From a virus, in the IMG/VR virus record IMGVR_UViG_3300020392_000025, positions 1 through 45,325 of that record: a stretch of DNA of 45,325 nucleotides; one strand, 5' to 3'. The stretch's first letter is position 1. Each line of letters starts with the position of its first letter. Both the position numbers and the translations under genes were made by a program. The notes beneath the pieces are model-generated. The model was given only the letters and a program-made list of their open reading frames with translations. It did not search any database and was not told the origin of the DNA. Shown piece after piece: positions 9,918-44,818 of the stretch.

Positions 9918-12900
9918 ATGGCTAATATTGTAACGGTAACAGAAACTAAAAAAGAAATAGTAAGTATAAACACCCCAGGACCACAAGGACCACAAGGGCC
10001 ACAAGGTGTACCTGGACCCTCTGGTAGTGCTACCGATATAAGTGCACTTAATACTTTTACAGGTTCAGCTCAGGCGGAAATAGACAGTTTAACTACTGCT
10101 ACAGGTTCATATTTAACGTCTTTACCTAGTGGAGTATTATCTGGCTCGGCTCAAATTTCAACAAACATTTCGGGTGCATTTACAGCTGCAAGCTCTTCAT
10201 TTAGTACAAGAACCACAACACTGGAATCAAATCCTGTATTTAGTGCAGCGGGTATATCAGGATCATTTGGTGCCGCTTCATCTTCATTTAGTACAAGAAC
10301 CACAACACTAGAATCAAATCCTGTATTTAGTGCAGCGGGTATATCAGGATCATTTGGTGCCGCTTCATCTTCATTTAGTACTAGAACAACAGTGCTAGAA
10401 TCAAATCCTGTATTTTCAGCAGCGGGTATTTCTGGGTCTTTTAATGCCACAAGTGCTTCATTTAGTACAAGGGTTACTACAAACGAAACTATAACATCAA
10501 AAACATTATTATCAAGTTCAGCTCAAATAGCATCGGATATTTCAGGGGCATTTGCTTCACCATTTACAGCAGCAGGTATAAGTGGATCTTTTACAGCTGC
10601 AAGTTCTTCATTTAGTACTAGGATTACTACAAACGAAACTATAACATCAAAAACATTATTATCAAGCTCAGCCCAAATAGCATCAGATATTTCAGGAGCA
10701 TTTGCTTCACCATTTACAGCAGCAGGTATAAGTGGATCATTTACACCCGCAAGTGCCTCATTTAGTACCAGAGTTACTTCATTAGAAGATGGTGGTAGTG
10801 GTGGTGGATTTACAGCAGCAGGAATTTCGGGTTCATTAGGACCTAATGCTACATTAATTAGATCATTAACAGCTTCAAATATATCAGGTTCATTCAATGC
10901 CGCTTCATCCTCATTTAGTACCAGAGTTACTTCATTAGAAGATGGTGGTAGTGGTGGTGGATTTACATCAGCGGGTATATCTGGATCATGGCAGGGACAA
11001 AATTTTATTTCTGCAAGTCAAGTAACACCTAATTTACCTTCAGGTACACTATCAAGTTCAGCTCAAATAGCATCGGATATTTCGGGTGCATTTGCTTCAC
11101 CTTTTACAGCAGCAGGAATTTCGGGTTCATTCAATGCTGCAAGTTCTTCATTTAGTACAAGAACAACAGCATTAGAATCAAACCCTGTATTCACAGCAGC
11201 AGGAATATCAGGTTCATTTAACGCAGCTTCATCTTCATTTAGTACAAGAACAACAACACTAGAATCAAACCCGGTATTCACAGCAGCAGGTATATCAGGA
11301 TCATTCAATGCCGTTTCATCTTCATTTAGTACAAGAACAACAACACTAGAATCAAACCCGGTATTTAGTGCAACAGGAATATCAGGATCATTTACATTAA
11401 CATCAAGTTCATTAGCAAGTCGTACTTCAACTCTAGAAGATGCAGGATATATAACTTCTGCTTTCCCATTCACAGGAGATGCTCAAATAACAGGATCATT
11501 AATAGTATCAGGGTCATTTAATGCCTTTAGAGTAGCAACAACTAATTTAGTATTAGGTACACAAGCAGGTGAAAATTTAAATCCTTCCGCAACTGGAAAT
11601 GTAATATTAGGTAATCAAGCTGGAATGGAAGGTTCCAGTACTACTCAAAAGAATGTTTTTATAGGAGATTCAGCAGGAGAAACTATTACAGGAACTTCTA
11701 GATACAATGTGTTTTTAGGATTAGATTCTGGAAAACAAGGATCGGGTAAAACTGATAATATTGGTATAGGATTTTCAGCTTTAAAAGGAAGATCAACTTC
11801 AGATTCATCTGATGGTAATGTTGCTATTGGGTACAGTGCTGCTCAATCATCATTAAGCACAAGATACACTGTTGCAATAGGGTATAATGCAGTAGCAGGT
11901 AATGCAAGTTCAGGCTTTAGTGGTTATGGTAATATTGGTATAGGACGAGATGCTATTTCTAATTTAGGAACTAGTGGAGGAGCATATAATACTGCTATAG
12001 GATATTATGCAGGTGCAACAATATCAAGTGGAAATGCTAATATAATAATAGGGTCAGGTAGTAGAGGTGAAGCAGCCATGTCTAATCAACTTAGAATAGG
12101 ACATTCTACCCTACATGTTATATCAGGTTCACTAACAACAGGAGATATCATATTCTACAATACAGCATCAGCACCAAATTTCTCAGGTTCATTCCAAGGT
12201 GATGGTTCAAATTTAACAAATCTACCAGCATCAAATCCATTTCCATTCACGGGAGATGCTCAAATAACAGGATCATTAATAGTATCAGGATCAGGAGGAT
12301 TAAAAGTAAAAGGTCCATTTGAATTATCAATGACAGCATCCTCCGGAGGTGCTACACCATTTTCTATTAAAGCAGCTAGTGATCTTGCTACAGATAAAAT
12401 TATAGAAATAAAAGATGATGGTGGAAGTTATGATTTATTAACTTTAGATAGTGAAGGAGCTCTTAGAATACGAGAAGCAGGAAATTCAGGTGAAGGTGGT
12501 GGAGTATATATTCAATCTGGAGGAACTACGTCAGATCATGCTAATATGTTTGTAAATGGAGGGACAGCTAGATTATCAATATCATCCAATACTAATGGAG
12601 CATTTACAGTTGTTCCTGGAGGCCAATCTAATGGTTATTTAGTTGGGTTAACAGGAAAAGGTACAATGGCTTTAGGTAAAGGTGCTACATCTGGAACTAA
12701 ACCTAGTGAGAATAATACAAATACTTTATACATTACTAATGGTACTAATCCTACAAATACACCTACTGATAGTTTTGCATTATTTTCAAAAGATGTTAAT
12801 AGTGGGGCAGGAACAGCATCACCAACTTTTTTAACAGAAGATGACACTACTATACAATTAGGTACTACTTCTTCATTTTCATATGTATCAGCTTCAGCAT

Positions 12901-14342
12901 TTAAAGGTGATGGTTCACAATTAACAGGCATAGTTGCAAGCACAGCCACAACAGCCTCTTATGTAGAAACATCTGAATATACTACAAGATGGAATGTTAC
13001 AAATAATGGATCCTCAGGTTATTATTTTGATGGAAATGGAGTAGGATCCACAGATAATAATCCGGACATATATTTAACAAGAGGTGAAAAATATCTATTT
13101 AATATAAATGCCGCCTCTCATCCTTTTGCAATTAGAGTAGCTAATGGAGGTAGTGCTTATAATGATGGTGTAACTAATAATGAACAAAATAATGGAGATT
13201 TAATATTTGAGGTACAAATGGATGCTCCTACTAGTTTAGTATATCAATGTACTATTCATGGTGGTATGGTTGGTAATATTTACATTGCAGATGCAAGAGT
13301 GGCTTCAGGATCATTTAGTGGATCATTCCAAGGTGATGGTTCAAATTTAACAGGAGTAGGTGGAGACGCTTTTCCATTCACAGGAGATGCTCAAATAACA
13401 GGTTCATTAATAGTATCAGGATCAACTGAATTAAGGGGGAGTAGAGGTTTTGCAACAAATGTAGTTATAGGTCAAAATGCTCAGGCAGCTAGCCAAAACT
13501 CAGTTGCTATTGGTAATGGAGCAGGTACTTCAGCTGGAGGATCAAATAATACAGCTATAGGTGACTCAGCTACTTTAAATAATAATACTCATTTTGGAAC
13601 TACTGTTGGCCAAGGTTCAAGTGTAACCGGAACAGCTGGTATAGCCTATGGCTATTCTGCTACATCAGCTGGCGAAGGTATTGCAATAGGTAGAAGTGCA
13701 AATGCTTCAACATATGGATTAGCAATAGGCAAGAGTGTTACAGCAGGTACTTCTCAATTAGCTATTGGATATCAAAATACAACTATATCAGCCTCATTTA
13801 CTACAGGTCGTGTTATATTATCAGGTTCAACAGGAGGATTAGAACTTATAGGTTCGGGTTCAACAATGTTTGAAGTAATAGGATCAGAAGGTACATTATT
13901 TGCAGTAGACGATGATTTAGACGGAACTATATTTACGGCAAACGATAGAACAGGTCTTCCAGTACTACAAGCCGAAGCAGACGGAGAAGTTTATTTAGGT
14001 AAAACACCACAATCTTTATATACAACAGCAGTAGTAAGCGCAACATCAGCCTCATCAACAGCTTCATTAATAGCATTAAGTACAAGTTCATATGACAGTG
14101 CATATTTCGATTTTACATGTATTTCAGCTTCAAATTCTACAGTAGGTAGTATAATGTCAACATGGAATGAAGAAACAATAACATTTAACGAATATGCCAC
14201 TTCTTCTATAGGTACAACATATAGAACAGCTGGTCTTGATTTACAAGTAATAATATCAGCAAGCCAAGCTCAACTAGTAGCCATAACAGACTCTACGAGT
14301 CCGAATACATGGAAAATTAAAACCACAGTAAGAGCAATATAA
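9918..14342 (+). CDS. Large modular tail-fibre/adhesin protein (1474 aa)
   Basis: Candidate long tail fibre or receptor-binding structural protein. Domains in order: a short N-terminal anchor; a collagen-like GPQGPQGPQGVPGPSG segment (about 21-36); Ser/Thr-rich 29- and 50-residue repeats (about 95-495); a YadA-like head region of IGxxA-type repeats ending SNQLRIGHS (about 544-730); GSFQGDGSNLTN and FPFTGDAQITGSLIVSGS linkers; a cupredoxin-like domain (about 1015-1128) with His1068, Cys1111, His1114 and Met1117; a second YadA-like region (about 1180-1290); and a C-terminal beta-rich tip. The modules are those of trimeric fibres. No S74 chaperone domain was recognised. Long antisense frames across the repeats are composition artefacts. 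Confidence 0.85.
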   Translation: MANIVTVTETKKEIVSINTPGPQGPQGPQGVPGPSGSATDISALNTFTGSAQAEIDSLTTATGSYLTSLPSGVLSGSAQISTNISGAFTAASSSFSTRTTTLESNPVFSAAGISGSFGAASSSFSTRTTTLESNPVFSAAGISGSFGAASSSFSTRTTVLESNPVFSAAGISGSFNATSASFSTRVTTNETITSKTLLSSSAQIASDISGAFASPFTAAGISGSFTAASSSFSTRITTNETITSKTLLSSSAQIASDISGAFASPFTAAGISGSFTPASASFSTRVTSLEDGGSGGGFTAAGISGSLGPNATLIRSLTASNISGSFNAASSSFSTRVTSLEDGGSGGGFTSAGISGSWQGQNFISASQVTPNLPSGTLSSSAQIASDISGAFASPFTAAGISGSFNAASSSFSTRTTALESNPVFTAAGISGSFNAASSSFSTRTTTLESNPVFTAAGISGSFNAVSSSFSTRTTTLESNPVFSATGISGSFTLTSSSLASRTSTLEDAGYITSAFPFTGDAQITGSLIVSGSFNAFRVATTNLVLGTQAGENLNPSATGNVILGNQAGMEGSSTTQKNVFIGDSAGETITGTSRYNVFLGLDSGKQGSGKTDNIGIGFSALKGRSTSDSSDGNVAIGYSAAQSSLSTRYTVAIGYNAVAGNASSGFSGYGNIGIGRDAISNLGTSGGAYNTAIGYYAGATISSGNANIIIGSGSRGEAAMSNQLRIGHSTLHVISGSLTTGDIIFYNTASAPNFSGSFQGDGSNLTNLPASNPFPFTGDAQITGSLIVSGSGGLKVKGPFELSMTASSGGATPFSIKAASDLATDKIIEIKDDGGSYDLLTLDSEGALRIREAGNSGEGGGVYIQSGGTTSDHANMFVNGGTARLSISSNTNGAFTVVPGGQSNGYLVGLTGKGTMALGKGATSGTKPSENNTNTLYITNGTNPTNTPTDSFALFSKDVNSGAGTASPTFLTEDDTTIQLGTTSSFSYVSASAFKGDGSQLTGIVASTATTASYVETSEYTTRWNVTNNGSSGYYFDGNGVGSTDNNPDIYLTRGEKYLFNINAASHPFAIRVANGGSAYNDGVTNNEQNNGDLIFEVQMDAPTSLVYQCTIHGGMVGNIYIADARVASGSFSGSFQGDGSNLTGVGGDAFPFTGDAQITGSLIVSGSTELRGSRGFATNVVIGQNAQAASQNSVAIGNGAGTSAGGSNNTAIGDSATLNNNTHFGTTVGQGSSVTGTAGIAYGYSATSAGEGIAIGRSANASTYGLAIGKSVTAGTSQLAIGYQNTTISASFTTGRVILSGSTGGLELIGSGSTMFEVIGSEGTLFAVDDDLDGTIFTANDRTGLPVLQAEADGEVYLGKTPQSLYTTAVVSATSASSTASLIALSTSSYDSAYFDFTCISASNSTVGSIMSTWNEETITFNEYATSSIGTTYRTAGLDLQVIISASQAQLVAITDSTSPNTWKIKTTVRAI
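10200..11410 (+). repeat. 87-bp and 150-bp in-frame repeats in the fibre gene
   Basis: Copies beginning TTTAGTAC occur at 10200, 10287, 10374 and 10461 (period 87 bp, 29 residues), then 10611 and 10761 (period 150 bp, 50 residues), and again at 11151, 11238 and 11325 (87 bp). Each encodes FSTRxTxLE followed by AAGISGSF-type strands. Near-identical DNA suggests recent unequal exchange. Confidence 0.92.
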
Positions 14343-14346
14343 AGTT

Positions 14347-15057
14347 ATGGGAATTAGAAGAGGTTCCATATTAACCCCAATTATAGCGGATGGGCTAGTA
14401 TTCAATATGGATGCTGCAAATAGGGCAAGTACTGTGCCTATAAGTACTATTACAACATCTTTTAATACTATAGATACAAATATTTCTGGTGCATTTTCTG
14501 ATAATGGTATATTTGATTCAAGTACTATTGTCCCTAGTTTTGCATTTGGGGGAACAGATGATTATATAGATGCATCCCAAATTAAACCCTCCTCTTTTTC
14601 AGCATATACATATAATGTCTGGTTAAAAACTTCATCTACATCACAACAATATGTGTTAGGAGGAGCAAGCGGAAATAAAAGTAATTATCCGACATTGTCT
14701 ACAAGATTTGATGGCTCTAGAGGTATTCGTTTTATAACATCAGGAGATGATTTATATGACACAGGAAACTTAAATAGTCATTTAGGAAATTGGATTCAAA
14801 TAACAATAACAGATGCTGGAGGAGATGATGTAGCTGCGTACTTAAATGGTGTTTCCCAAGCTATAACAAAAGCAGTAGATAATGGAGGTTATAGAGCAAA
14901 TCAATCATTAAATATAGGAAGAGGTATGAGAAATACTGGCGGATTCACTGGTAATTATTTTTCGGGCAACATGGGATGTGTGCATGTATACAACCGCGCC
15001 TTATCAGCAAACGAAGTGTTACACAACTACAACGCATTAAAATCAAGATTCGAATGA
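14347..15057 (+). CDS. LamG/ConA-like lectin-domain protein 1 (236 aa)
   Basis: Predicted single-domain jelly-roll (laminin G / concanavalin A-like) protein, probably a glycan-binding tip or decoration of the tail fibres. Family features: IADGLVFNMDAANRAST near residue 13, FGGTDDYIDAS (about 69), an N-V-W strand near the centre, NWIQITITDAGG (about 156), and the C-terminal block YNRALSANEVLHNYNALKS that is shared by all five paralogues here. The gene starts 5 bases after the large fibre and overlaps the next lectin gene by ATGA. Specificity cannot be read from sequence. Confidence 0.78.
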   Translation: MGIRRGSILTPIIADGLVFNMDAANRASTVPISTITTSFNTIDTNISGAFSDNGIFDSSTIVPSFAFGGTDDYIDASQIKPSSFSAYTYNVWLKTSSTSQQYVLGGASGNKSNYPTLSTRFDGSRGIRFITSGDDLYDTGNLNSHLGNWIQITITDAGGDDVAAYLNGVSQAITKAVDNGGYRANQSLNIGRGMRNTGGFTGNYFSGNMGCVHVYNRALSANEVLHNYNALKSRFE

Positions 15058-15743
15058 GTGGAAGAGTAGGTAGCATAACAACAGAGATAATAGCGGATGG
15101 GCTAGTATTCAACATGGATGCTGCAAATAGGGCAAGTACTATACCTAGTACTAGTACTTTAAAAACATTCAACACAATAGATACTTCTATATCTGGGTCT
15201 ATAGTTACAGATGCAACATGGGAAGAAGGATCACCTTCAACTTTTGATTTTGATGGTACTGATGGTAAAATTGAAACTAATTTTACTACAAATGGGTTTT
15301 CTGGTTTAACTGTATCTGCATGGATTTATAGAATAAGTAATCAAGTACAATATTTTGCAAGTCAATGGATAGAAGGAAGCGGAACTTCATCTTCATGGGG
15401 TCTTGATACTTATACTAATAAACTTCTTTTTTTTGTAAGAGCAGGAAGTTCATCTAAAGTAATAACAGGGGGAACAAATATAACAACAGGAGTTTGGAGA
15501 AATGTTACTGGAATATGGGATGGAAGTAATATATATGTTTATTTAGATGGCATATCAGATGCAACTCCTGTATCATGTACTAGCATGAATACTACAACAC
15601 CAAATATGTCAATAGCATCTAGTACTAATGATCAGTATTTTTTAAATGGTAATATAAATAGTGTTCATGTCTACAACCGCGCCTTATCCGCAAACGAAGT
15701 ACTACATAACTACAACGCATTAAAAGGGAGGTTTGGATTATGA
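15054..15743 (+). CDS. LamG/ConA-like lectin-domain protein 2 (229 aa)
   Basis: Paralogue of the preceding gene. The start is the ATG at 15054 (MSGRVGSITTEI), overlapping the upstream stop as ATGA; an upstream in-frame start at 14976 would bury 78 bases in the previous gene and add an unrelated N-terminus. The first about 45 residues are nearly the same as in paralogue 3 (IPSTSTLKTFNTIDTSISGS here), and the C-terminal YNRALSANEVLHNYNALKG block is nearly invariant, while the middle is unrelated in detail. LamG features: FDFDGTDGKIE, GLTVSAWIY, GVWRNVTGIWDGSNIYVYLD. Confidence 0.78.
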   Translation: MSGRVGSITTEIIADGLVFNMDAANRASTIPSTSTLKTFNTIDTSISGSIVTDATWEEGSPSTFDFDGTDGKIETNFTTNGFSGLTVSAWIYRISNQVQYFASQWIEGSGTSSSWGLDTYTNKLLFFVRAGSSSKVITGGTNITTGVWRNVTGIWDGSNIYVYLDGISDATPVSCTSMNTTTPNMSIASSTNDQYFLNGNINSVHVYNRALSANEVLHNYNALKGRFGL

Positions 15744-16462
15744 AATACGGGTCAATAACAACAGGTATTATAGCGGATGGGCTAGTATTCAACATGGATG
15801 CTGCTAATAGGGCAAGTACTATACCTAGTACTAGTACTTTAAAAACATTCAACACAGTAGATACTTCTATATTTGGGTCTATAATAACAGATTCTACATG
15901 GACTAATTCAACAATTTCACCCTCATTTAATTTTGATGGTAGTGATGGGTATATTGATTTTAGTGATGATGATATATTTAGTTTTGGTAATGGTACCACA
16001 GACTTTCCTTTTAGTGTTAGTTGTTGGGCATATTGTGTTGATGCTACTAGATTTAGAACTTTATCTAAAGCTACTGAATGGCTTCATGGGGGTTTTGGTA
16101 GTGATACACTTGGATTACTTTTGATGGATAACAATGCTTCAAATTATATATACAGAACATCAAATGCAACTATTCCTCAAAATGTTTGGGTAAATTTAGT
16201 CTCAACTTATGATGGTTCAGGAGCTAATACAGGCATAAAACTTTATATTAATGGATCAGAAGATTCGGGTACAACGGGAAATGCTGGTTCTTATACAGCA
16301 ATGCATAATAATTCTAGTATTTTATATGTAGGACGAGATAGTGATTTTGGAAACTATTTTGCAAATGGAAATATTGGATCTGCCCAAATTTACAACCGTG
16401 CCTTATCAACCACAGAAGTCTTACACAACTACAACGCATTAAAAGGAAGATTTGGGCTTTAA
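15740..16462 (+). CDS. LamG/ConA-like lectin-domain protein 3 (240 aa)
   Basis: Third tandem paralogue, again overlapping the previous stop as ATGA. The N-terminus (GSITTGIIADGLVFNMDAAN) and first about 130 bases are almost identical in DNA to paralogue 2. LamG features: FNFDGSDGYIDFSDDD, FPFSVSCWAY, NVWVNLVSTYDG, IKLYINGSEDSG, and the C-terminal YNRALSTTEVLHNYNALKG. A GGGAGG at 15725-15730, 9 bases before the start, could help initiation. A late-type motif follows the gene, so this ends the first adhesin block. Confidence 0.78.
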   Translation: MKYGSITTGIIADGLVFNMDAANRASTIPSTSTLKTFNTVDTSIFGSIITDSTWTNSTISPSFNFDGSDGYIDFSDDDIFSFGNGTTDFPFSVSCWAYCVDATRFRTLSKATEWLHGGFGSDTLGLLLMDNNASNYIYRTSNATIPQNVWVNLVSTYDGSGANTGIKLYINGSEDSGTTGNAGSYTAMHNNSSILYVGRDSDFGNYFANGNIGSAQIYNRALSTTEVLHNYNALKGRFGL

Positions 16463-19232: not shown

Positions 19233-22200
19233 ATGCCTAATATAAGATTTATAGATAGTGGAACCCCAGTAGGTGCTTACGGTATACCTAAAGTAGATAA
19301 TGCTACATCATCTAGTTTTGCTGCCTCAGCTAGTTTTGCTAATACAGCAATCACGGCCAGTCATGCTCTATTTGCAGTATCCGCATCAGTTGAGATTACA
19401 AAAGAAGTATCTTCTTCTCATGCTAATAGAGCAGATGTTGCAAATATTGCTGAAGGATTACAAAATCAACCTTCAATATTTACCACTAATATTACCTCAT
19501 CAGGCAATATAAGTTCAAGTGCAAATGTTAGAAGTAATATAAGTGTAGGAAATACTACAGGACAACTACATGTTACACAATCTACTGAATTAATAGTTAA
19601 AGTAGATACTCAAGTCCCAGACCATAGATACTATGATATAGGTTCGGCAAATAAATACTACATTAATGGATTAACATCCCCATATTTTGATGTTTACCCA
19701 GGTAAAAAATATAAATTTAACCAAAACGATTCTTCAAATAATAATCACCCTGTAATATTTTATTTAGATGCGGCCAGAACTACCGAATATAATACAGGAG
19801 TAATATATTATGCAGATGGAATTCAATCTACTTCTGCAAATTACAATACAAATTTTAATGCTGCTTCAGTTAGATACACTGAAATACAAATAACAGATAC
19901 TACCCCATCAATACTTTACTACCAATGTTATAATCATGGATATATGGGTAATGCTGTGTATGTTCAAGGTGCACAACAATTTACAGCAGCATCAGGCTCG
20001 TTTTCAGGATCATTTGAAGGTAATGGTTCAGGGTTAACTAGTATACCAGCGTCAGGAATAGTAGGATTAAATTTATCACAGATCGTTAGTGGTTCAGCAA
20101 CGGCATCTATATCTCCTAATTTAGGATTAGTTGTTAATACTAATGTATCCTCGAGTGCAACTTCAACAGCATCATTCGGAACATATTTAGGTGATGGTTC
20201 ACAATTATCTGGAATTACACCTACAGCAGGATCTTCGGCAGGCAGAGTAGTATTCACCACTACAAATGGAGAATTAACAGCGGAATCGGGATTTGAATAT
20301 GATTCTGCAACAGATCAATTAACAGTACAATCCTTAAATGTTACACATTTAACATCATCTTTTATAACAGCATCTACAATCCAAACCTCAGGATCTAATA
20401 TTTTTGGAGATGATACAACAGATACTCAAACATTAATAGGTACTACTAAGATGACAGGATCTGTACAAGCAACAGGTTCAGTTGACTTTCTTTTATCGGG
20501 AAATAATATTAAAATAAATCAAGGAGGTTCAGGTAATATTATATTTTCTAATACTTCAAACGCTAGTGCTAATATAATAGACGGTAGATACAATTCACAA
20601 ACAAAAGCTTTATTAGGATTAAGTGGTGGTAGTGGATATTTACAATTATTTCATGCTGGAACTTCTAAATATGTAGATTTAAATTCATCTACAAATTATT
20701 TATTTGCTAATACAAGATTTGGGGCAAATAGTGGTACTGCCTTATCTACTGTTGATATAGTAGGAGATTTAAATGTTTCAACAAACATTACAGCCTCAGG
20801 CAATTTATCAGGCAGTGCAACATCAACATCATCATTCGGAACATATTTAGGTGATGGTTCACAATTAACCGGCATAGAAACAGATCCATTCCCATATACT
20901 GGAGATGTTCAAATAACAGGATCATTATTAGTATCAGGATCAACAACTTCAGATATTATATTACCAAATGCTCCTACAAATGCTGTTATAATATCAGGTA
21001 GTAATAACCGTACAAGATTACATATATATGAATCTGTAGAAAATAATAGTCCTGAATATACAGAAGGTGCAGGTATAAAATTAGTAGGAGGAGAAGGGTC
21101 CGGTCATCAATCAACATTAGAAATATCATCAGTTGGTTCTGCTAACGGGGGTGGTAATAATGAACAATCATTTATTCGTTCAAACCAACAATTAGTTATA
21201 CGAGGTAATGATAATGATGCAGGTGATAATATTAGATTTTTAGGTTCACATGATAGTTATGGGTTAAAATTTGATGCAAGTACTTCAGGGGTTACATTAA
21301 CATATTTTACTAATGGAGGAGCAACAGTATCAGAGCTTAATATGGGTAATGGCACCTATATACAAGCAGCTGCAAATGGTTCTTACTACAAAATAGGAAG
21401 AAGTTCAACAGATTGGTTAAATTTATCATCTACAAAAGCTACATTCGCAGCTGATGTTTCTTCAAGCGCAACTTCAACAGCATCCTTCGGAACATATTTA
21501 GGTGATGGTTCACAATTAACAGGCATAGAAGCAGGAACTAATTTAACACAATCTTTATTTGTATCACCTTCAGGAGATAATTCTACAGCAATAGTAGGAG
21601 ATTTAACAAAACCATTCTCTACAATATTAGGAGCAACAGGGTCCGCAAATCCAGGCGACACTATTATAGTATATCCTGGTACATATGTTGAAAACCATAA
21701 CTTATATAAAGATGGTGTTAATTATCATTTTATAGATGGAGCAAAAGTTGTAGCAACATCCCCAGTAGAACCTATGTGGGGTGGAGGAGCAGGTACAGCA
21801 AATGGTATAGGAACAAGTTTTGATTCTCCTATAAGCATAACGGGACATGGAGAATTTATTAGCACAACATCTAATACAAGGACATCTGCAATATTTTACA
21901 TACAAGCACCATCTGGAGTTATTGAAATTAAAAGAGCTGTAAAGCATGGAATTGCGGGAGACTCATATACTCTAGTAGCTGGGTTTGGTCAAGTTACTTC
22001 TATAGATTCAACCGGTGTATTAACAGTGCGGGGTAAATTTGAAAATTCTGGATCTGCTTCATCATATAGTAATGTAGTATCACTTGGGCAAGGTAATATT
22101 AATACCGATATAGTAGTTAGAGCAGAAAATGGTACCGCAACTGGTGTTTATTTATGGAGTGATACTGGAGATATAAATGGTACAATGGATGTATATTCAG

Positions 22201-23048
22201 AAGCAACAGGATTAGTTTGTTCTGCAAGACAATCTGCATTATCTTATTTGAAAGGTAGATTTGAAACATTAACTACAAACCAAGGATCAAATTATGCACT
22301 ATATTTTTCTCCAGGATATCGAGGTAGTTTTTATGTAGATGCCGAAATTCGTGGAGCTATATATATTAATCCTGGAGGAGCATATGAAGCTAGTGTACAA
22401 ATAGAGGGATATCAAGAAATAAGTAATTCTCCGGGTGGGGGTGCAAATGTTATTTTAAGTGGCCATAATCAATTATCACAAAAAATATATGGAGTTGGAA
22501 GTGCTACTGCAGCATTTAAGGTAACGGGTGGAACAACTACTTATGATGGACTCATAAGACTTACCGGATCATACCCCAAATTATTTGATATATCTTCAGG
22601 AATATTTTATTGGAAAGGTACAGCTCAAGGCGTAGCAGCTAGTTTACCGACTACTTATACAAATCCAAGTGAAGTATCTGGTGGAGAATTAATAATAGAA
22701 TCACAACTAGATTATTTTAATGCTGGTAATTACCAACACACAAATGATTATGTATTTAATTTATCTGGTGGGACATTAGATATCCAAAGTAAGATTAGAC
22801 AACATGAAGATGGGGGTAACAATGGAATTGTTAATATGACAGGTGGATATTTAAAAATGAATGGTGTAGAACTAGTTCATGCAACTAAAACAGGATCTTT
22901 TGCTTATGCAATCGACTTGAATAATCAGACGCATTCTGGATCAATACTAAATAATTGTTTCACAAATTTACAACCATTTAATTCTGGTTCATTTATAAAC
23001 GAGGTAACAGGAGGGGGCACATTATTTGAATCACATAAACTATATTAA
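19233..23048 (+). CDS. Large fibre with cupredoxin-like and beta-helix domains (1271 aa)
   Basis: Probable tail-fibre/adhesin. Order: an Ala/Ser-rich N-terminus with coil-like repeats (SSSFAASASFANTAITASHA, about 26-45); a cupredoxin-like domain (about 128-248) with His172, Cys232, His235 and Met238; GSFSGSFEGNGSGLTS and FGTYLGDGSQLTG linkers repeated three times; PYTGDVQITGSLLVSGS; and from about residue 770 a right-handed beta-helix/pectate-lyase-like region beginning SLFVSPSGDNSTAIVGDLTK. It ends GGGTLFESHKLY, closely matching the end of the next fibre. A degradative activity against surface polysaccharide is possible but no catalytic residues were identified. Confidence 0.83.
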   Translation: MPNIRFIDSGTPVGAYGIPKVDNATSSSFAASASFANTAITASHALFAVSASVEITKEVSSSHANRADVANIAEGLQNQPSIFTTNITSSGNISSSANVRSNISVGNTTGQLHVTQSTELIVKVDTQVPDHRYYDIGSANKYYINGLTSPYFDVYPGKKYKFNQNDSSNNNHPVIFYLDAARTTEYNTGVIYYADGIQSTSANYNTNFNAASVRYTEIQITDTTPSILYYQCYNHGYMGNAVYVQGAQQFTAASGSFSGSFEGNGSGLTSIPASGIVGLNLSQIVSGSATASISPNLGLVVNTNVSSSATSTASFGTYLGDGSQLSGITPTAGSSAGRVVFTTTNGELTAESGFEYDSATDQLTVQSLNVTHLTSSFITASTIQTSGSNIFGDDTTDTQTLIGTTKMTGSVQATGSVDFLLSGNNIKINQGGSGNIIFSNTSNASANIIDGRYNSQTKALLGLSGGSGYLQLFHAGTSKYVDLNSSTNYLFANTRFGANSGTALSTVDIVGDLNVSTNITASGNLSGSATSTSSFGTYLGDGSQLTGIETDPFPYTGDVQITGSLLVSGSTTSDIILPNAPTNAVIISGSNNRTRLHIYESVENNSPEYTEGAGIKLVGGEGSGHQSTLEISSVGSANGGGNNEQSFIRSNQQLVIRGNDNDAGDNIRFLGSHDSYGLKFDASTSGVTLTYFTNGGATVSELNMGNGTYIQAAANGSYYKIGRSSTDWLNLSSTKATFAADVSSSATSTASFGTYLGDGSQLTGIEAGTNLTQSLFVSPSGDNSTAIVGDLTKPFSTILGATGSANPGDTIIVYPGTYVENHNLYKDGVNYHFIDGAKVVATSPVEPMWGGGAGTANGIGTSFDSPISITGHGEFISTTSNTRTSAIFYIQAPSGVIEIKRAVKHGIAGDSYTLVAGFGQVTSIDSTGVLTVRGKFENSGSASSYSNVVSLGQGNINTDIVVRAENGTATGVYLWSDTGDINGTMDVYSEATGLVCSARQSALSYLKGRFETLTTNQGSNYALYFSPGYRGSFYVDAEIRGAIYINPGGAYEASVQIEGYQEISNSPGGGANVILSGHNQLSQKIYGVGSATAAFKVTGGTTTYDGLIRLTGSYPKLFDISSGIFYWKGTAQGVAASLPTTYTNPSEVSGGELIIESQLDYFNAGNYQHTNDYVFNLSGGTLDIQSKIRQHEDGGNNGIVNMTGGYLKMNGVELVHATKTGSFAYAIDLNNQTHSGSILNNCFTNLQPFNSGSFINEVTGGGTLFESHKLY

Positions 23049-23051
23049 AAA

Positions 23052-24623
23052 ATGGCATTTACATCATCATATACAGATCATTTAATACAACAATCCCAAT
23101 TTTACTATGGAGTTCCATCTATGGAACCAGGTTTATCAGGTTCATTTTCTGGTTCATTCCAAGGCGATGGTTCAAATTTAACAGGTATTTCGGGAGGAAT
23201 AAATTTAACACGGTCTTTATTTGTATCACCTTCAGGAAATGATGGAACCGCTGTAGTAGGTGATTTAACAAAACCATTTTCTACAATCTTAGGAGCAACG
23301 GGATCTGCAAATATAGGAGATACAATTATAGTATACCCAGGAACATATACACCGGCTTCACAAATAATAAAAGACCATGTAAATTATTATTTTCATCCTG
23401 GAGCTATTGTTACTGGATCTATAGCACTAATGGAAGGTACCTTTGATAATATTAATGTTAGAGGGTATGGTACTTTTGATGTGAATGGAGATATAACAGG
23501 TATTAGTGTAACAGCTAATGGACATATTGAAGTAGATAAATTTATAATACGAGGAATTACAAGTACGAATAGAAAAAGAATGACTTTTAATGGATCTGGA
23601 AGTGGGCTTTTAGAATTAAAAGGTACAGGAATTGCAGAAGGTGTAGGAGCACTTAATTCAGAACTTTTTTCTTTTGGTACTGGTGAAGTATTAGCAGACA
23701 TTCAAGCATTTGATAATACTGTAGGTGGAGATATATGTATTGAGGTTGCTGGAGCAGGAACTAAAACTATAAATGCCTATGCTGTAAGTAAAATGGGAAA
23801 TACAGTTTATATTTCTACTAATAGCTACCCAGAAGCTATTAATCTCACGGGCCATTTTGAAACTCAAAACCAAGCTAATAAATATGCAATGTTTTTATCT
23901 ACAGGAAATGGAGCAGATATTAAAGTAGATGCTCATATAGTAGGATCTATATATTCTTTAAATAGTAATAACCATCTTACTCAAATCCATGGTAGTCAAG
24001 TCTGTAGTGCTTCTCCATCAAACGATGCAGCTGTTAGTTGTGATCAGGGAGAACATTTATTAAATCAATATCTTAGATGTTCCACACCAACAGCTTATCA
24101 TTTAGATGATACTAATGGGCAAGTAACAGTTACAGGAGTAGCTCAACCAGAAGGACAATATAAAAGATTAATGGATGTTCAAAGTGGAAAATTTGTATGG
24201 CGTGGTACTTCATTTAATCAATCTGTTAGAGCCGAATCCAGTAAAATAGAAGGTACAGGTACAGTTATAATAGATTCACCTCTTTTTCATTATGGTGCTA
24301 CTTATCCACAGAATGAATATGCCTTTCATTTAAATAGTGCAGATGCAACTTTAGAAATAAATAATAAACTTGAATATAATCATGATATTACAGGATCAGG
24401 CATAATAAACATTACTTCTGGGCGTTTAGTACTAGATGGTGCTCAACTAATACATGGAGGTGGAACCGGATCATATGCATATGCAATTAAATTAAATGAT
24501 AAAGCACACTCAGGATCTATATTTAGTAACAGCTTTACAAACCTAACCCCATTTGGACCAGGTTCATTTGAAAACGAAATAGTAGGTGGGGGAACACTAT
24601 TTGAAACCGATAAATTAAGTTAA
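23052..24623 (+). CDS. Beta-helix tail fibre/spike (523 aa)
   Basis: The N-terminal about 45 residues (MAFTSSYTDHLIQQSQFYYG onward, then GSFSGSFQGDGSNLTG) are almost identical to those of the next gene, suggesting a shared attachment domain. From about residue 50 the protein is a paralogue of the C-terminal beta-helix of the 1271-aa fibre (SLFVSPSGNDGTAVVGDLTK, then GDTIIVYPGTYTP), and ends GGGTLFETDKLS. It begins three bases after the previous stop. It is most simply read as a spike with a variable glycan-binding or glycan-degrading solenoid. Confidence 0.82.
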   Translation: MAFTSSYTDHLIQQSQFYYGVPSMEPGLSGSFSGSFQGDGSNLTGISGGINLTRSLFVSPSGNDGTAVVGDLTKPFSTILGATGSANIGDTIIVYPGTYTPASQIIKDHVNYYFHPGAIVTGSIALMEGTFDNINVRGYGTFDVNGDITGISVTANGHIEVDKFIIRGITSTNRKRMTFNGSGSGLLELKGTGIAEGVGALNSELFSFGTGEVLADIQAFDNTVGGDICIEVAGAGTKTINAYAVSKMGNTVYISTNSYPEAINLTGHFETQNQANKYAMFLSTGNGADIKVDAHIVGSIYSLNSNNHLTQIHGSQVCSASPSNDAAVSCDQGEHLLNQYLRCSTPTAYHLDDTNGQVTVTGVAQPEGQYKRLMDVQSGKFVWRGTSFNQSVRAESSKIEGTGTVIIDSPLFHYGATYPQNEYAFHLNSADATLEINNKLEYNHDITGSGIINITSGRLVLDGAQLIHGGGTGSYAYAIKLNDKAHSGSIFSNSFTNLTPFGPGSFENEIVGGGTLFETDKLS

Positions 24624-24626
24624 AAA

Positions 24627-27218
24627 ATGGCATTTACATCATCATATACAGAAGGATTAATACAACAATCTGAATACTACTACGGAGTTCCATCTATGGA
24701 ACCAGGTTTATCAGGTTCATTTTCAGGTTCATTCCAAGGTGATGGTTCACAATTAACAGGAGTAGGTGGTAGTGGTGATACCCCTACATTCATAGGATCA
24801 GGTTCAACATCAGCTTCAACAGATCCAAATAATGGAGTAGTAATAAACGCTAGTGGTTCAACATTATTTGATGTAAGAGGATCATTAGGTTCATTATTTT
24901 CAGTAACAGATAGCTTTGAAGATAATTTATTTGAAGTAAATAATATATCAGGTATATCACTATTAACTGTATCATCTAGTGGAGATGTAGATATACCAAA
25001 AGGTGTTTTAACAGTTTCAGGTTCAGTTTCAGCTAGTCAATTTTTAGGTGATGGTTCACAATTAACAGGCATATCATCTACACCATTTCCATTCACAGGA
25101 GATGCTAAAATAACAGGTTCATTAACAATATCAGGATCATTTTCATCATTTAGAGTAGCTGAATCTAATATAGTGTTAGGTACAGGTGCAGGAGCATTAT
25201 TACGCTCTTCAGATACAAATAATGTTATGTTAGGGGTAGATGCAGGAGCGGGAGTACAAAATGACGATGTAATTGCTATTGGACATTCTGCTGGTGGAGT
25301 TGTAAATTTTAATAGTAGTGTAGTCATAGGAAAACAAGCAGGATTAAATGTTCAAGGTTCTGCAAATAGTATGGTTTTAATAGGGGAACTAGCGGGACAA
25401 AGAGCTGATACTGGAGACACTTACATAGGAACAAATTCCGGTACTGGTGCAGGTTCGGGAGGTAGTAGTGGTGGGATGAATACTGGATTAGGTTATTTAT
25501 CTTTAAGTGGGATTAATGGAGGATCAAATAATATTGGTATTGGTAGAAACGCAGGAGCTAGTATAGCATCTGGTGATGGGAACATTATAATAGGATCGGG
25601 TAGTTTAGGTGAAGCCGCAATGTCTAACCAACTTAGAATTGGAAATAGTAATAATTTCACACTAATATCTGGTTCACTGGCAGATGGAGGTCTTTTAATA
25701 CAAGGCCAAGTATCAGCTTCATCTTACATAGGTGATGGTTCTGGTTTAACAGGTATATCATCAACACCATTCCCATTTACTGGAGATGCTAAAATAACAG
25801 GATCACTAGTTATATCAGCATCAAACAACACTTCAGAATCACTATCCATACAAGGATCAGGTTCAACAATATTTTCAATACAAGGTTCACAAGGTCAATT
25901 ATTTTCAGTAACAGATGATTTACTAGATGAAGTATTCTCAGTAGCAGATATATCAGGTGATACATTATTAAGTGTATCAGGATCAGGACTAGTAACAATA
26001 CCAGTAGGAGATTTAACAGGTAGTGCTACAGCTACTGCTTCATATGGTGCATTTAAAGGTGATGGCTCACAATTAACAAATTTACCAGCATCAAACCCAT
26101 TCCCATTCACAGGAGATGCTTCAATAACGGGTTCATTAACAGTATCCGGATCATTTCATGCATTTAGATTAAACTCTCAAAATGTAGTTTTAGGGCAAGA
26201 TGCTGGATTCAATACTAATGTAAATGGTCCTCGAAATGTGTTTGTTGGATATCAAGCAGCATATACAAACACAATAGGTGATGATAATGTGTGTGTAGGA
26301 CGTGCAGCGGGATATGCTTTATCAAATGGTGCTTCAGACGGTAACATTTTTATAGGAAGTTTAGCTGGAGCAGGAGGTACTTCCCCAGCCGCTAGAATGT
26401 CAGATGCTAATAATAACATTGGTATAGGGTATGAAGCATTATTATATTTAACCTCGGGAGATCAAAATATAGGTATGGGAGTTCGTACCTTACGTCATAT
26501 ATCTACTGGTAGGTATAATTATGCTTATGGTGATGGAGCTTTATATAATACTAACTCTGGTCAAAATAATATAGGTATAGGATATCAGGCAGGATTAAAC
26601 CAAACTACGGGCAATGGAAACATAACAATAGGGTCCGGTAGTTTAGGTGTTGCGGGAGAATCAAACCAACTTAGAATTGGAAATGGCAATGGTGATGTTT
26701 TAATTCATGGAGATTTTGATTCTGGAAGTATCACTTTTAATGTATCAGGATCGAATGCATTCCAGGTAATAGGAACAGAAGGTACTATATTTAAATTGGA
26801 TGATGATCTAGACGGAACACTATTTACAGTAAACGATAGATCAGGTATTCCAATGTTTGAAGTATCTGCCAGTGGTAGAATAGTAGCAGAAGAAGGTGAA
26901 TCCATTATTAGATCACAAAGACCAATGGTTACACATACTGCAGATTTCAGTATCACATCTTCATTAGACTTTGCAGGTAAATACCATATAGTAGGAGGTG
27001 ATTTAACATGCTCAATAAACACAAGTTCAATAGTACCAGCAGGAGCAGAATTTGAATTTTTCCAAACCTCATCTGCCGGTAACTTTTTATATACAACAGC
27101 TTCCCATGTAGATTTAATAGTAAAAAATGATAATCTAAACCTAGCAGGTAGAGGATCAGGAGCTACACTAAAATATATAGGTGGAAGTACATTCCACTTA
27201 GTAGGAGATTTAACATAA
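24627..27218 (+). CDS. YadA-like modular tail fibre (863 aa)
   Basis: The N-terminus duplicates that of the 523-aa fibre (MAFTSSYTEGLIQQSEYYYG). It is followed by GDGSQLTG linkers and two YadA-like head regions (about 183-340 and 519-686), each of IGxxAG repeats ending SNQLRIGN. Three FPFTGDAxITGSL modules separate them. The C-terminus (SLDFAGKYHIVGG to the end) is a beta-rich tip with LKYIGGSTFHLVGDL. Such IGxxA repeats form trimeric beta-prisms in bacterial adhesins; in phages they often precede an S74 chaperone, which was not recognised here. Starts three bases after the previous stop and ends one base before a lectin gene. Confidence 0.82.
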   Translation: MAFTSSYTEGLIQQSEYYYGVPSMEPGLSGSFSGSFQGDGSQLTGVGGSGDTPTFIGSGSTSASTDPNNGVVINASGSTLFDVRGSLGSLFSVTDSFEDNLFEVNNISGISLLTVSSSGDVDIPKGVLTVSGSVSASQFLGDGSQLTGISSTPFPFTGDAKITGSLTISGSFSSFRVAESNIVLGTGAGALLRSSDTNNVMLGVDAGAGVQNDDVIAIGHSAGGVVNFNSSVVIGKQAGLNVQGSANSMVLIGELAGQRADTGDTYIGTNSGTGAGSGGSSGGMNTGLGYLSLSGINGGSNNIGIGRNAGASIASGDGNIIIGSGSLGEAAMSNQLRIGNSNNFTLISGSLADGGLLIQGQVSASSYIGDGSGLTGISSTPFPFTGDAKITGSLVISASNNTSESLSIQGSGSTIFSIQGSQGQLFSVTDDLLDEVFSVADISGDTLLSVSGSGLVTIPVGDLTGSATATASYGAFKGDGSQLTNLPASNPFPFTGDASITGSLTVSGSFHAFRLNSQNVVLGQDAGFNTNVNGPRNVFVGYQAAYTNTIGDDNVCVGRAAGYALSNGASDGNIFIGSLAGAGGTSPAARMSDANNNIGIGYEALLYLTSGDQNIGMGVRTLRHISTGRYNYAYGDGALYNTNSGQNNIGIGYQAGLNQTTGNGNITIGSGSLGVAGESNQLRIGNGNGDVLIHGDFDSGSITFNVSGSNAFQVIGTEGTIFKLDDDLDGTLFTVNDRSGIPMFEVSASGRIVAEEGESIIRSQRPMVTHTADFSITSSLDFAGKYHIVGGDLTCSINTSSIVPAGAEFEFFQTSSAGNFLYTTASHVDLIVKNDNLNLAGRGSGATLKYIGGSTFHLVGDLT

Positions 27219-27219
27219 A

Positions 27220-28005
27220 ATGGGTTCTTCATTCGGGGTCATATCACAAACTGGAAATAACATTCAGACAGAAGGGTTAGTATTTTATATTGACCCAGCT
27301 TACAAAAAATCATGGTCTGGGCCCGAATCAAGTGACACAAATACATTAGTACCTAATAGTATTTTTACTGGATCTATTAATAATGATACATCTGGAAGTT
27401 ATGGTCAATACAATAGTTTTACTTTTGATGGAACTGACAGTTATATTAATGTAGCACCATTAACTGCTTCTATAAACACTGCTACTGTTGGTACAATATC
27501 ATTATGGACAAGAATAGAAAGTAACAGTTCTTATAGTTGTTTATTTAGCGGTACTCGAGCTCTACGTAGAACAAGTTTTGCTTTAAGATTAATAGATTCT
27601 GGATTACCAGCTAAATTACATATGACTTTTAGAAAAAATGGTGAAGATCCTTCCCATGTTGCTTTTCAAACTACAAATACAGAAATAAATGCAGACACCT
27701 GGTATAATATTACAGTAACACAAGATGGAACAGCTGCAGTATGTTACATTAATGGAAGTACAGTTAGTTTGGAAAATTTAACTGGCGGTAATCCAACAAC
27801 AGTAGCTACAATGTGGTATAATTATATTACACCTACAGAATTATATATAGGTAAAAATAGAGTTGCAAATCAAAATAATCCTGGGGCCTTTGATGGACAA
27901 TATTGGGATGGTCAAATGGGACCTATATTGTTTTACAACCGTGCCCTCTCAGCAGAAGACGTTCTCCAAAACTACAATGCACAAAAAGGCAGATTCGGAT
28001 TATGA
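27220..28005 (+). CDS. LamG/ConA-like lectin-domain protein 4 (261 aa)
   Basis: Fourth paralogue and the most divergent at its N-terminus (GLVFYIDPAYKKSWSGPESS instead of the FNMDAANRAST type). LamG features: FTFDGTDSYINVAPL, GTISLWTRIES, TWYNITVTQDGTAAVCYING, ELYIGKNR. The C-terminus keeps the family block (FYNRALSAEDVLQNYNAQKG). It starts one base after the 863-aa fibre and overlaps the next lectin as ATGA. Probably a tip or accessory adhesin of the second fibre set. Confidence 0.77.
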   Translation: MGSSFGVISQTGNNIQTEGLVFYIDPAYKKSWSGPESSDTNTLVPNSIFTGSINNDTSGSYGQYNSFTFDGTDSYINVAPLTASINTATVGTISLWTRIESNSSYSCLFSGTRALRRTSFALRLIDSGLPAKLHMTFRKNGEDPSHVAFQTTNTEINADTWYNITVTQDGTAAVCYINGSTVSLENLTGGNPTTVATMWYNYITPTELYIGKNRVANQNNPGAFDGQYWDGQMGPILFYNRALSAEDVLQNYNAQKGRFGL

Positions 28006-28754
28006 AAGTAGGTAGCATAACAACAGATATTATTAAAAATGGGTTAGTGTTTAATATGGATGCTGCTAATAGAGCAAGCTATCCCAAAACTGGTACTACT
28101 GTTACTGATACTATTGGTACTATTAATGGCACTCTTCAATCTTCTGGAATGTTTGAAAACACTAATAGTGGTGTATTTAATTTTGATGGGAGTACTAATT
28201 ATATAGTAGCAAATTCTTTAGCTTCAACAATGGCTAATGCTTCTGAAGGTACTTTTTGTTTGTGGGTAAAACCTCAAGGAGGTAATACTAATAGAAATGG
28301 CGTTAGTTTTGATGATTTAAATGGTAATACCACAATTCAAATAGCAGTACATGGAAGAGATAATGGGAGTAGCCCTGGATCTATATATTGGTTTTGTAGA
28401 GTAAGTGGCACAAATCAATTTATAGTTACTTCCGAAAATAATGTTAGTGTAGATAATGAATGGGCATATGTTTGTGGAGTTCAAACAGCTGATACTAATG
28501 CTCCTCTTTTATATCGAAATGGTCAATTATTATCTGCTACAAATTCAATAAGTACTAATAATGCATACTTTTTTTCTTCTGATACAAGTAATATTATTGA
28601 TGGTTTTAGCATTGGAAGATATAATAGTGGGTATAACCCAAATGAAAATCATTTTTACGGAGATATGGGGTCTGTACACATCTACAACCGCGCCTTATCA
28701 GCAACAGAAGTCCTACACAACTATAACGCTTTAAAAGGAAGATTTGGTTTATAA
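28002..28754 (+). CDS. LamG/ConA-like lectin-domain protein 5 (250 aa)
   Basis: Fifth paralogue. The start is the ATG at 28002 (MKVGSITTDIIKNGLVFNMD), overlapping the upstream stop as ATGA; an in-frame start at 27903 would lie 100 bases inside gene 4 and is rejected. The N-terminus is of the same type as paralogues 1-3 despite lying about 11.5 kb from them. LamG features: FNFDGSTNYIVANS, EGTFCLWVKPQGG, EWAYVCGVQTADT, and the C-terminal YNRALSATEVLHNYNALKG. Last gene of the second adhesin block. Confidence 0.78.
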   Translation: MKVGSITTDIIKNGLVFNMDAANRASYPKTGTTVTDTIGTINGTLQSSGMFENTNSGVFNFDGSTNYIVANSLASTMANASEGTFCLWVKPQGGNTNRNGVSFDDLNGNTTIQIAVHGRDNGSSPGSIYWFCRVSGTNQFIVTSENNVSVDNEWAYVCGVQTADTNAPLLYRNGQLLSATNSISTNNAYFFSSDTSNIIDGFSIGRYNSGYNPNENHFYGDMGSVHIYNRALSATEVLHNYNALKGRFGL

Positions 28755-43549: not shown

Positions 43550-44818
43550 TTGTTTTGGCTAATTGAAAATACTGACCAATTAAAAGGTTTTTATAATAAA
43601 GGTTACAAAGAAGCTTACATAGAAGTTATACCATATTCTTATAAAACTCATCCTGTAACTAATAAAATATCTTTAGTATATGTACATCCTTTAGATGCAC
43701 ATAAGGGCTATATCATCTCAATAAACCATAGCGAATCTATGCCGTTAAACAGCGAGTATATTGCTGAATTAATTAGTAGTTATGGTACATTATATGTTTG
43801 GGGTAAAAAAGAATTTTTGCATTATTACGTGCATAAAAATATAATAGATATTTCTTTAACATCCCCAGAATATGAAATGGAAACTACTAAAGCTCACCAA
43901 ATCTTACAACAAAGAACTAAAGATAAGTTGGATATTAATAGAATAGTTCCTATCGTTAAGCATTATGAAACTTGTGAAAAAAATTACAATAATTTAAAAC
44001 AATATTTTAATGAACCAGTCAACGAATTTTACAATAGCAGAGTACCATTGGTATTCAACGCCATCGAAAGGAGTGGAATACGAGTTAATAGAAAACTCTT
44101 CAAACAATACTTTGACAAAGATTGGGGAGATAAAGTGTACACACAATATAATTACAGAACAACTACAACAAGGCCCTCAAATAGGTTCGGAGGGGTCAAT
44201 TTTGCAGCTTTAAATAAAGATAATGGTTGTAGAAAATCCTTTATACCAGAAAATGATAAACTTCTTGAAATCGATATATCAGCTTATCACCCTACTCTTG
44301 CTAGTTCCCTTATTCATTATACTTTTGATGATGGAGATATTCATAAATCTTTCGCAAAAATGTATGGGGTGGATTACCAAAAAGCCAAAGAATTAACATT
44401 TAAGCAACTTTATGGAGGTGTATTTAAACAGTATAAAAATTTAGAATTTTTTGCTGGTATTCAAAAATACATAGATCAATTATGGTACTTTTTTAAAAAA
44501 AATGGTTACATAGAATGTCCTATATCAAAACATAAATTTGAGTATGGTAAGTTGGATAATATGAACCCACAAAAACTATTTAATTATTTACTACAGAATT
44601 TGGAAACTGCAATTAATGTTCGTATATTATGGGATATAATTAAGTTACTAAAAGGTAAAAAAACAAAATTAATTCTTTACACATATGATGCTTTTTTATT
44701 AGATGTGTGCAAGGAAGAAAAAGAAGATATTAAAAAAATACTTAAAGTGTTTGATAAATATAAGTTAAAAACAAAAATTAAACATGGAGACAGCTACGAT
44801 TTTACAGAACGAGATTAA
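43550..44818 (+). CDS. A-family DNA polymerase, polymerase domain only (422 aa)
   Basis: Palm/fingers region of a family A DNA polymerase. Visible are TTTTRPSNRFGG (about 204-215, template/primer region), motif A LLEIDISAYHPTL with Asp242, motif B YQKAKELTFKQLYGG (276-290, O-helix-like) and motif C LYTYDAFLLD with Asp380, where the usual HDE reads YDA. No DEDD exonuclease or 5' nuclease motifs are present; the N-terminal about 160 residues are a distinct conserved-looking domain. RM378 has a family A polymerase split from its exonuclease, which is the closest known parallel. The frame opens with TTG at 43550 right after an in-frame TAA (43547), so TTG is the likely start; the first in-frame ATG (43739) would remove 63 residues. 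Confidence 0.78.
   Translation: MFWLIENTDQLKGFYNKGYKEAYIEVIPYSYKTHPVTNKISLVYVHPLDAHKGYIISINHSESMPLNSEYIAELISSYGTLYVWGKKEFLHYYVHKNIIDISLTSPEYEMETTKAHQILQQRTKDKLDINRIVPIVKHYETCEKNYNNLKQYFNEPVNEFYNSRVPLVFNAIERSGIRVNRKLFKQYFDKDWGDKVYTQYNYRTTTTRPSNRFGGVNFAALNKDNGCRKSFIPENDKLLEIDISAYHPTLASSLIHYTFDDGDIHKSFAKMYGVDYQKAKELTFKQLYGGVFKQYKNLEFFAGIQKYIDQLWYFFKKNGYIECPISKHKFEYGKLDNMNPQKLFNYLLQNLETAINVRILWDIIKLLKGKKTKLILYTYDAFLLDVCKEEKEDIKKILKVFDKYKLKTKIKHGDSYDFTERD

What the first reader, a model, noticed from the sequence alone, without database searches (positions are those of the whole stretch)
19612..19977. Second, divergent cupredoxin-like domain in another fibre with the same ligands
The 1271-aa fibre carries NNHPVIFYL (His172) and YYQCYNHGYMGNAVYVQ (Cys232, His235, Met238). 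Apart from the ligands the domain differs substantially from the one at 12958. Retention of all four ligands in both diverged copies argues that metal binding is selected. Possible roles: fold stabilisation of the trimer, redox sensing, or binding of a host metal-transport receptor.
Basis: inference. Interest (0 to 1): 0.68.

Follow-up and report, generated by a model that had tools for sequence, protein, structure and literature searches.

The report
Copper-site cupredoxin domain in phage fibre
A tail-fibre protein of this marine virus of bacteria carries a copy of the blue-copper protein fold (the plastocyanin kind) with its four metal-holding residues intact, and the same module with the same four residues recurs in the fibres of hundreds of ocean phages, which suggests that many marine virus particles carry copper although nobody seems to have reported it.

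Summary
ORF 19233-23048 (1271 aa) carries a domain (window ~19623-19967) with His172, Cys232, His235 and Met238. It is homologous to, but only about 24-31% identical with, the copy in ORF 9918-14342. A profile of 40 phage copies finds blue-copper proteins of the PDB (NirK 4.5e-7, plastocyanin 1.9e-6, amicyanin 1e-4) with the ligands aligned; the best PDB fold matches of the first copy's model are cupredoxins. In 53 diverse copies the four most conserved columns are exactly the four ligands. When copies were recruited by the N-terminal half alone, 158 of 164 distinct ones carried CxxHxxM. Exceptions are mostly Leu or Gln for the axial Met, both known in type 1 copper sites, or loss of several ligands together. 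The two copies belong to deeply separated clades shared with other marine phages, so the site has been kept independently in both. Most likely it is a copper-binding cupredoxin module spliced into trimeric fibres, where copper rigidifies a surface bead that takes part in host contact. Cupredoxin and site: strong. Copper in the virion: likely, untested. What copper does: open. No paper found describes a cupredoxin in phage fibres.

The parts
19233..23048 (+). 1271-aa fibre protein carrying the domain; tail fibre family phrog_30742 over residues 83-312, C-terminal part shared with the next ORF
   Evidence: (E 6.6e-27)
19623..19967 (+). cupredoxin domain 2 (d2), family-profile match
   Evidence: (E 2.3e-22); AF2 model pLDDT 82, pTM 0.79
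19746..19748 (+). His172, first His metal ligand (HP motif)
19926..19928 (+). Cys232, thiolate ligand; the only Cys in the domain
19935..19937 (+). His235, second His ligand
19944..19946 (+). Met238, axial ligand
19992..20050 (+). SGSFSGSFxGxGSxLT linker directly after d2, same repeat family as the linker after d1
   Evidence: family D3
9918..14342 (+). 1474-aa fibre carrying the first copy
   Evidence: phrog_677, baseplate wedge tail fibre connector, E 1.7e-26
12978..13289 (+). cupredoxin domain 1 (d1): His1068, Cys1111, His1114, Met1117
   Evidence: E 5.4e-44; AF2 pLDDT 92, pTM 0.86; best PDB fold hits are cupredoxins
13305..13363 (+). SGSFSGSFQGDGSNLTG linker directly after d1
   Evidence: family D3 reference copy

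Best explanation
The feature is a cupredoxin domain of the plastocyanin/amicyanin class with a complete type 1 copper ligand set (His, Cys, His, axial Met), inserted as a bead into a trimeric tail fibre and bounded by the recurrent GDGSxLTG-type fibre linkers. Shown: homology to blue-copper proteins, fold (for d1), ligand set and spacing, and strong independent conservation of the ligands. Inferred: each chain binds one copper (three per fibre trimer), probably picked up outside the cell or during lysis because the fibre has no export signal and is made in the cytoplasm. Inferred, weaker: the copper-thiolate site clamps the ligand loops and gives a rigid, exposed bead that helps the fibre contact the host surface. 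I give about 0.93 to 'cupredoxin with an intact type 1-like site', 0.7 to 'copper bound in the virion', and about 0.45 to the structural/adhesive role.
For: Profile A1 against PDB sequences: NirK 4.5e-7, plastocyanin 1.9e-6, amicyanin 1e-4, with His, Cys, His and Met aligned in the printed plastocyanin alignments. NCBIfam amicyanin matches 6 of 40 members, best 2.8e-6; Pfam Copper-bind matches 7 of 40, best 9.8e-5. The d1 model matches cupredoxins at probability 1.00, NirK 1.1e-4, N. maritimus purple cupredoxin TM 0.65. Ligands are the top four conserved columns. Motif-masked recruitment: 158 of 164 (counting L178, whose motif is seen in the overlapping locus L002). Axial replacements are Leu (4 distinct copies) and Gln (1), residues that natural type 1 sites use (laccase and stellacyanin precedents are own knowledge). 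In phage gp7-like wedge proteins the ligands are lost together (K/D/H/V; Q/A/N/-; N/T/H/-), so the domain can persist without the site and the site behaves as a unit. d1 and d2 lie in clades split at 100/99 support. Marine bacterial lipoproteins carry the same domain at 41-48% identity with all ligands. The ligand Cys is the only Cys in the domain, against an intradomain disulfide.
Against: No metal measurement exists. The d2 model alone has no PDB fold match below E 1e-3; its best matches are Ig-like, with rusticyanin and amicyanin at probability 0.8, so its assignment rests on the family. The window copies themselves reach no Pfam or NCBIfam copper family. The residue after the first His is Pro, not the Asn of plastocyanin. 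Cytoplasmic copper is scarce (own knowledge), so loading is a problem. Nothing here tests adhesion.
Confidence: 0.72

Rival explanations
1. Copper Trojan horse: the fibre presents a copper site (or apo-site) to a host outer-membrane or surface metal-acquisition protein, which serves as receptor, by analogy with the iron hypothesis for tail fibres.
For: The ligands, not the surface, are what is conserved. Iron in T4 gp37 fibres and a proposed iron-receptor route are published for phage fibres (PMC11705849). The domain was found only in aquatic phages in the phage collection.
Against: A type 1 copper is buried and tightly held (own knowledge), a poor bait. The domain sits in wedge, connector and proximal fibre proteins as well as in other fibres. 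No receptor is known.
Confidence: 0.17
2. Redox switch or sensor: the Cu(I)/Cu(II) state, or oxidation of the free Cys in the apo form, changes fibre conformation or triggers tail contraction near a respiring or photosynthetic cell.
For: The site is that of electron-transfer proteins.
Against: Type 1 sites change little with redox state (own knowledge). No partner domain is seen; the host protein and the position along it vary.
Confidence: 0.08
3. The four residues hold another metal such as zinc, or none, and are kept for packing or folding only.
For: No metal data. Cupredoxin sites can take other metals in vitro (own knowledge).
Against: Ligand-poor copies persist in wedge proteins, so the domain does not demand them. 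Leu or Gln exchange at the axial position is typical of copper sites. Soft Cys/Met ligation is unusual for structural zinc.
Confidence: 0.12
4. Chance motif resemblance in an unrelated beta-sandwich.
For: The d2 fold search alone is ambiguous.
Confidence: 0.02

Closest known systems
Amicyanin / plastocyanin (PF00127 Copper-bind; TIGR02657, TIGR02656)
   Same: Ligand order, profile homology across about 77 residues; beta-sandwich for d1. The C-x2-H-x2-M spacing is seen in the C-terminal cupredoxin domain of NirK 6hbe and, from own knowledge, in amicyanin.
   Different: Internal bead in a phage fibre instead of a soluble periplasmic carrier; no signal peptide; His-Pro instead of His-Asn at the first ligand; the window copies do not reach the curated families.
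PHROG families phrog_30742, phrog_677, phrog_27200, phrog_708 (tail fibre, gp9-like connector, unknown, baseplate wedge)
   Same: These phage families contain the domain: 39 of 40 members match phrog_27200 and 37 match phrog_677.
   Different: They are annotated as fibre, connector, wedge or unknown; the cupredoxin nature is not stated.
C-terminal domains of Flavobacteriaceae lipoproteins with CHRD or Lipoprotein_15 repeats (L350-L357)
   Same: 41-48% identity to d1 with the same ligands.
   Different: Cellular, with N-terminal sequences that look like lipoprotein signals.
Iron-binding HxH fibres (T4 gp37, alterophage R22Y)
   Same: Metal ions in a phage tail fibre (PMC11705849).
   Different: HxH pairs binding iron in the trimer, not a cupredoxin site inside each chain.

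Membership tests
Cupredoxin superfamily, plastocyanin/amicyanin class | Sequence homology to proven blue-copper proteins | tested here: met
   profile of phage copies hits NirK, plastocyanin, amicyanin at 4.5e-7 to 1e-4
Cupredoxin superfamily, plastocyanin/amicyanin class | Greek-key beta-sandwich fold | tested here: met
   d1: top hits are cupredoxins, probability 1.00. For d2 alone inconclusive
Cupredoxin superfamily, plastocyanin/amicyanin class | Type 1 ligand set His ... Cys-x2-His-xn-Met, conserved in the family | tested here: met
Cupredoxin superfamily, plastocyanin/amicyanin class | Binds copper with a blue (about 600 nm) spectrum | not testable with these tools
   needs protein
PF00127 / TIGR02657 as curated families | Score above curated cut-off | tested here: not met
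   d2: no Pfam or NCBIfam family; d1: no copper family in Pfam or NCBIfam. Not filed as a plastocyanin or an amicyanin
Amicyanin (functional) | Periplasmic electron carrier with signal peptide | tested here: not met
   domain is internal in 1271- and 1474-aa fibre proteins
phrog_30742 phage tail fibre | Homology including the domain | tested here: met
   E 6.6e-27 full protein; 1.3e-33 domain

The most novel reading that the evidence does not exclude
Most cyanomyoviruses and many other marine phages are copper-carrying particles: each fibre or wedge trimer holds type 1 copper that is needed for host attachment, which makes copper a determinant of marine phage infection and phages a carrier of bioavailable copper.
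Probability: 0.2. Interest if true: 0.88.

Novelty: new variant of a known kind. Interest (0 to 1): 0.6.

Why it matters
Phage fibres with a conserved blue-copper site would add a second transition metal to virions, after the iron of T4-type fibres, and in very abundant ocean phages. It gives an immediate test (are the proteins blue, do the particles hold copper?), explains a domain now annotated only as fibre or unknown, and bears on host attachment and on the marine copper budget.

Tried and rejected
Chance motif: rejected. Window-specific recent duplication: rejected, the copies fall in two old clades. Disulfide role of the Cys: the domain has a single Cys. Whole-alignment scans with A1, A3 and A4 failed because no stretch was conserved enough; replaced by single-sequence N-terminal-half scans. 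A direct phmmer of d2 against the PDB gave nothing relevant, and Pfam on d2 gave nothing; only the family profile is sensitive enough. Fold search of the d2 model was ambiguous. Ten literature searches found no cupredoxin in phage fibres; the library is open-access papers only, so this is weak evidence of absence. First-pass recruitment used patterns that included the ligand motif and was not used alone to claim conservation.

Full report
What is there. The window is a 45,325-base virus record that encodes a T4-like head, tail sheath, baseplate and fibre gene array on the + strand. Its portal protein is closest, among 50,697 phage records, to Flavobacterium phage immuto at 59% identity. The 1271-aa ORF 19233-23048 carries the reported domain. 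The residues are as stated: His172, Cys232, His235, Met238. The other copy, in ORF 9918-14342, has His1068, Cys1111, His1114 and Met1117. CxxHxxM occurs nowhere else in the 33 ORFs, and no shuffle of 5,000 gave two.

Are the two copies related? Yes. BLASTP gives 31% identity over 98 aa at E = 1e-5, and iterated profiles from either seed recruit the other. In a tree of 59 representatives the two lie in clades separated at 100/99 support. d2 groups with fibres of Melnitz, Mosig, P-TIM68 and P-SSM2; d1 groups with connector-type fibres. Cyanophages Bellamy and P-SSM2 carry both types. The copies are therefore old paralogous lineages and each has kept the four ligands. Many forks of the tree are unresolved because there are only 108 columns.

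Is it a cupredoxin? A single sequence is too diverged for Pfam or the PDB. The profile of 40 phage copies finds blue-copper proteins as its top hits: NirK 4.5e-7, plastocyanin 1.9e-6, amicyanin 1e-4, with His, Cys, His and Met aligned to the copper ligands in the printed plastocyanin alignments. Six of 40 members match the amicyanin model (best 2.8e-6) and seven match Copper-bind (best 9.8e-5). The d1 model (pLDDT 92) matches cupredoxins in the PDB with probability 1.00. The d2 model (pLDDT 82, insertions, low-confidence N-terminus) is a beta-sandwich but its PDB matches are weak and mixed. For d2 the assignment rests on homology and ligands, not on its own fold search.

Is metal ligation selected? 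In 53 copies below 70% identity the four columns of highest information out of 113 are Cys, Met, His and His, in that order. The first recruitment used patterns that contained the motif, so I repeated it with the N-terminal half only, motif excluded. Of 164 distinct copies that run far enough, 157 have CxxHxxM by script and one more (L178) has it on inspection of the overlapping locus L002. These masked patterns did include the first His, so that residue is not tested without bias. Across all sets, 270 of 280 distinct full copies are His/Cys/His/Met; four are His/Cys/His/Leu and one His/Cys/His/Gln; the other five have lost one or more of the strong ligands. Leu and Gln are axial residues of natural type 1 sites in laccase and stellacyanin (own knowledge). 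In the gp7-like wedge proteins of P-HM1, S-H25 and S-IOM18 a copy has lost several ligands at once. The domain can thus persist without the site, and where the site is kept it is kept whole.

Where else is it? tblastn with d1 finds 356 phage records and with d2 187, nearly all labelled Synechococcus, Prochlorococcus, cyanophage, Pelagibacter, Methylophilales or marine. The portal search lists 633 Escherichia, 324 Klebsiella and 134 Vibrio records, and none of these names appears in the domain lists. It occurs in myoviruses and also in P-GSP1 (Autographiviridae) and pelagiphage Baldr, one to four copies per genome. The immuto phage lacks it, so it is probably an exchangeable module. Both copies in the window are followed at once by the same SGSFSGSFxGxGSxLT linker, part of an eight-copy DNA repeat family, a likely means of shuffling (inference). 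Flavobacteriaceae and a myxobacterium have the same domain at the C-terminus of proteins that look like surface lipoproteins, and these fall among phage sequences in the tree, which points to exchange between phages and cells.

How it most likely works. Shown: a cupredoxin-family domain with an intact type 1-like ligand set under strong conservation in fibres, connectors and wedges. Inferred: one copper per chain, three per trimer, loaded after or at lysis. Inferred, weaker: copper stiffens the bead, and the bead contributes to host-surface contact. Rivals are a metal-receptor bait, a redox switch, or another metal. Iron-holding HxH fibres and the Trojan-horse proposal are the nearest published idea (PMC11705849). 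I found no paper that reports a cupredoxin in a phage fibre in an open-access library.

Verdict. The domain family is known to PHROGs under fibre names, so the novelty lies in recognising a conserved copper site as a virion module.

Noticed in passing
L115, L116, L127 (gp7-like wedge proteins): Cupredoxin-like copies that have lost several metal ligands together; L115 and L127 also hold a ligand-bearing copy in the same protein.
   Followed up: partly
L350-L357: Flavobacteriaceae lipoprotein-like proteins with CHRD or Lipoprotein_15 repeats end in the same cupredoxin domain, with all four ligands.
   Followed up: partly
L349:2867-4339: A Nonlabens genome contig encodes a T4 gp9/10-like N-terminal domain followed by the cupredoxin domain: a T4-like phage or prophage in a bacterial assembly.
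   Followed up: no
BFVD hits A0A481YXP1, A0A481YY19, A0A481Z6J5, A0A481Z7Q7: Beta-sandwich proteins of marseillevirus- and pithovirus-like genomes resemble the d1 model (E about 1e-6 to 1e-5); whether they keep metal ligands was not checked.
   Followed up: no
window 10080-11481: 87-base (29-residue) tandem repeats in the 1474-aa fibre, which also has a collagen-like GPQGPQGPQG stretch near its N-terminus.
   Followed up: no
window 14347-16462 and 27220-28754: Two sets of tandem laminin-G/concanavalin-like lectin genes, several with overlapping ends.
   Followed up: no
window 22824-23123 and 24399-24698: The 1271-aa and 523-aa fibre genes share a 3' end at 72% DNA identity, as if one end module had been copied.
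   Followed up: no
window 43550-44818: Weak match to DNA polymerase family A (E 5e-4) in an ORF beside the tail genes.
   Followed up: no
L100/L296 versus L057/L297: Same fibre domain with the ligand Cys and its neighbours changed (YYQCQ to YFIAQ) in one of two otherwise matching contigs; may be a sequencing or local frame error.
   Followed up: no
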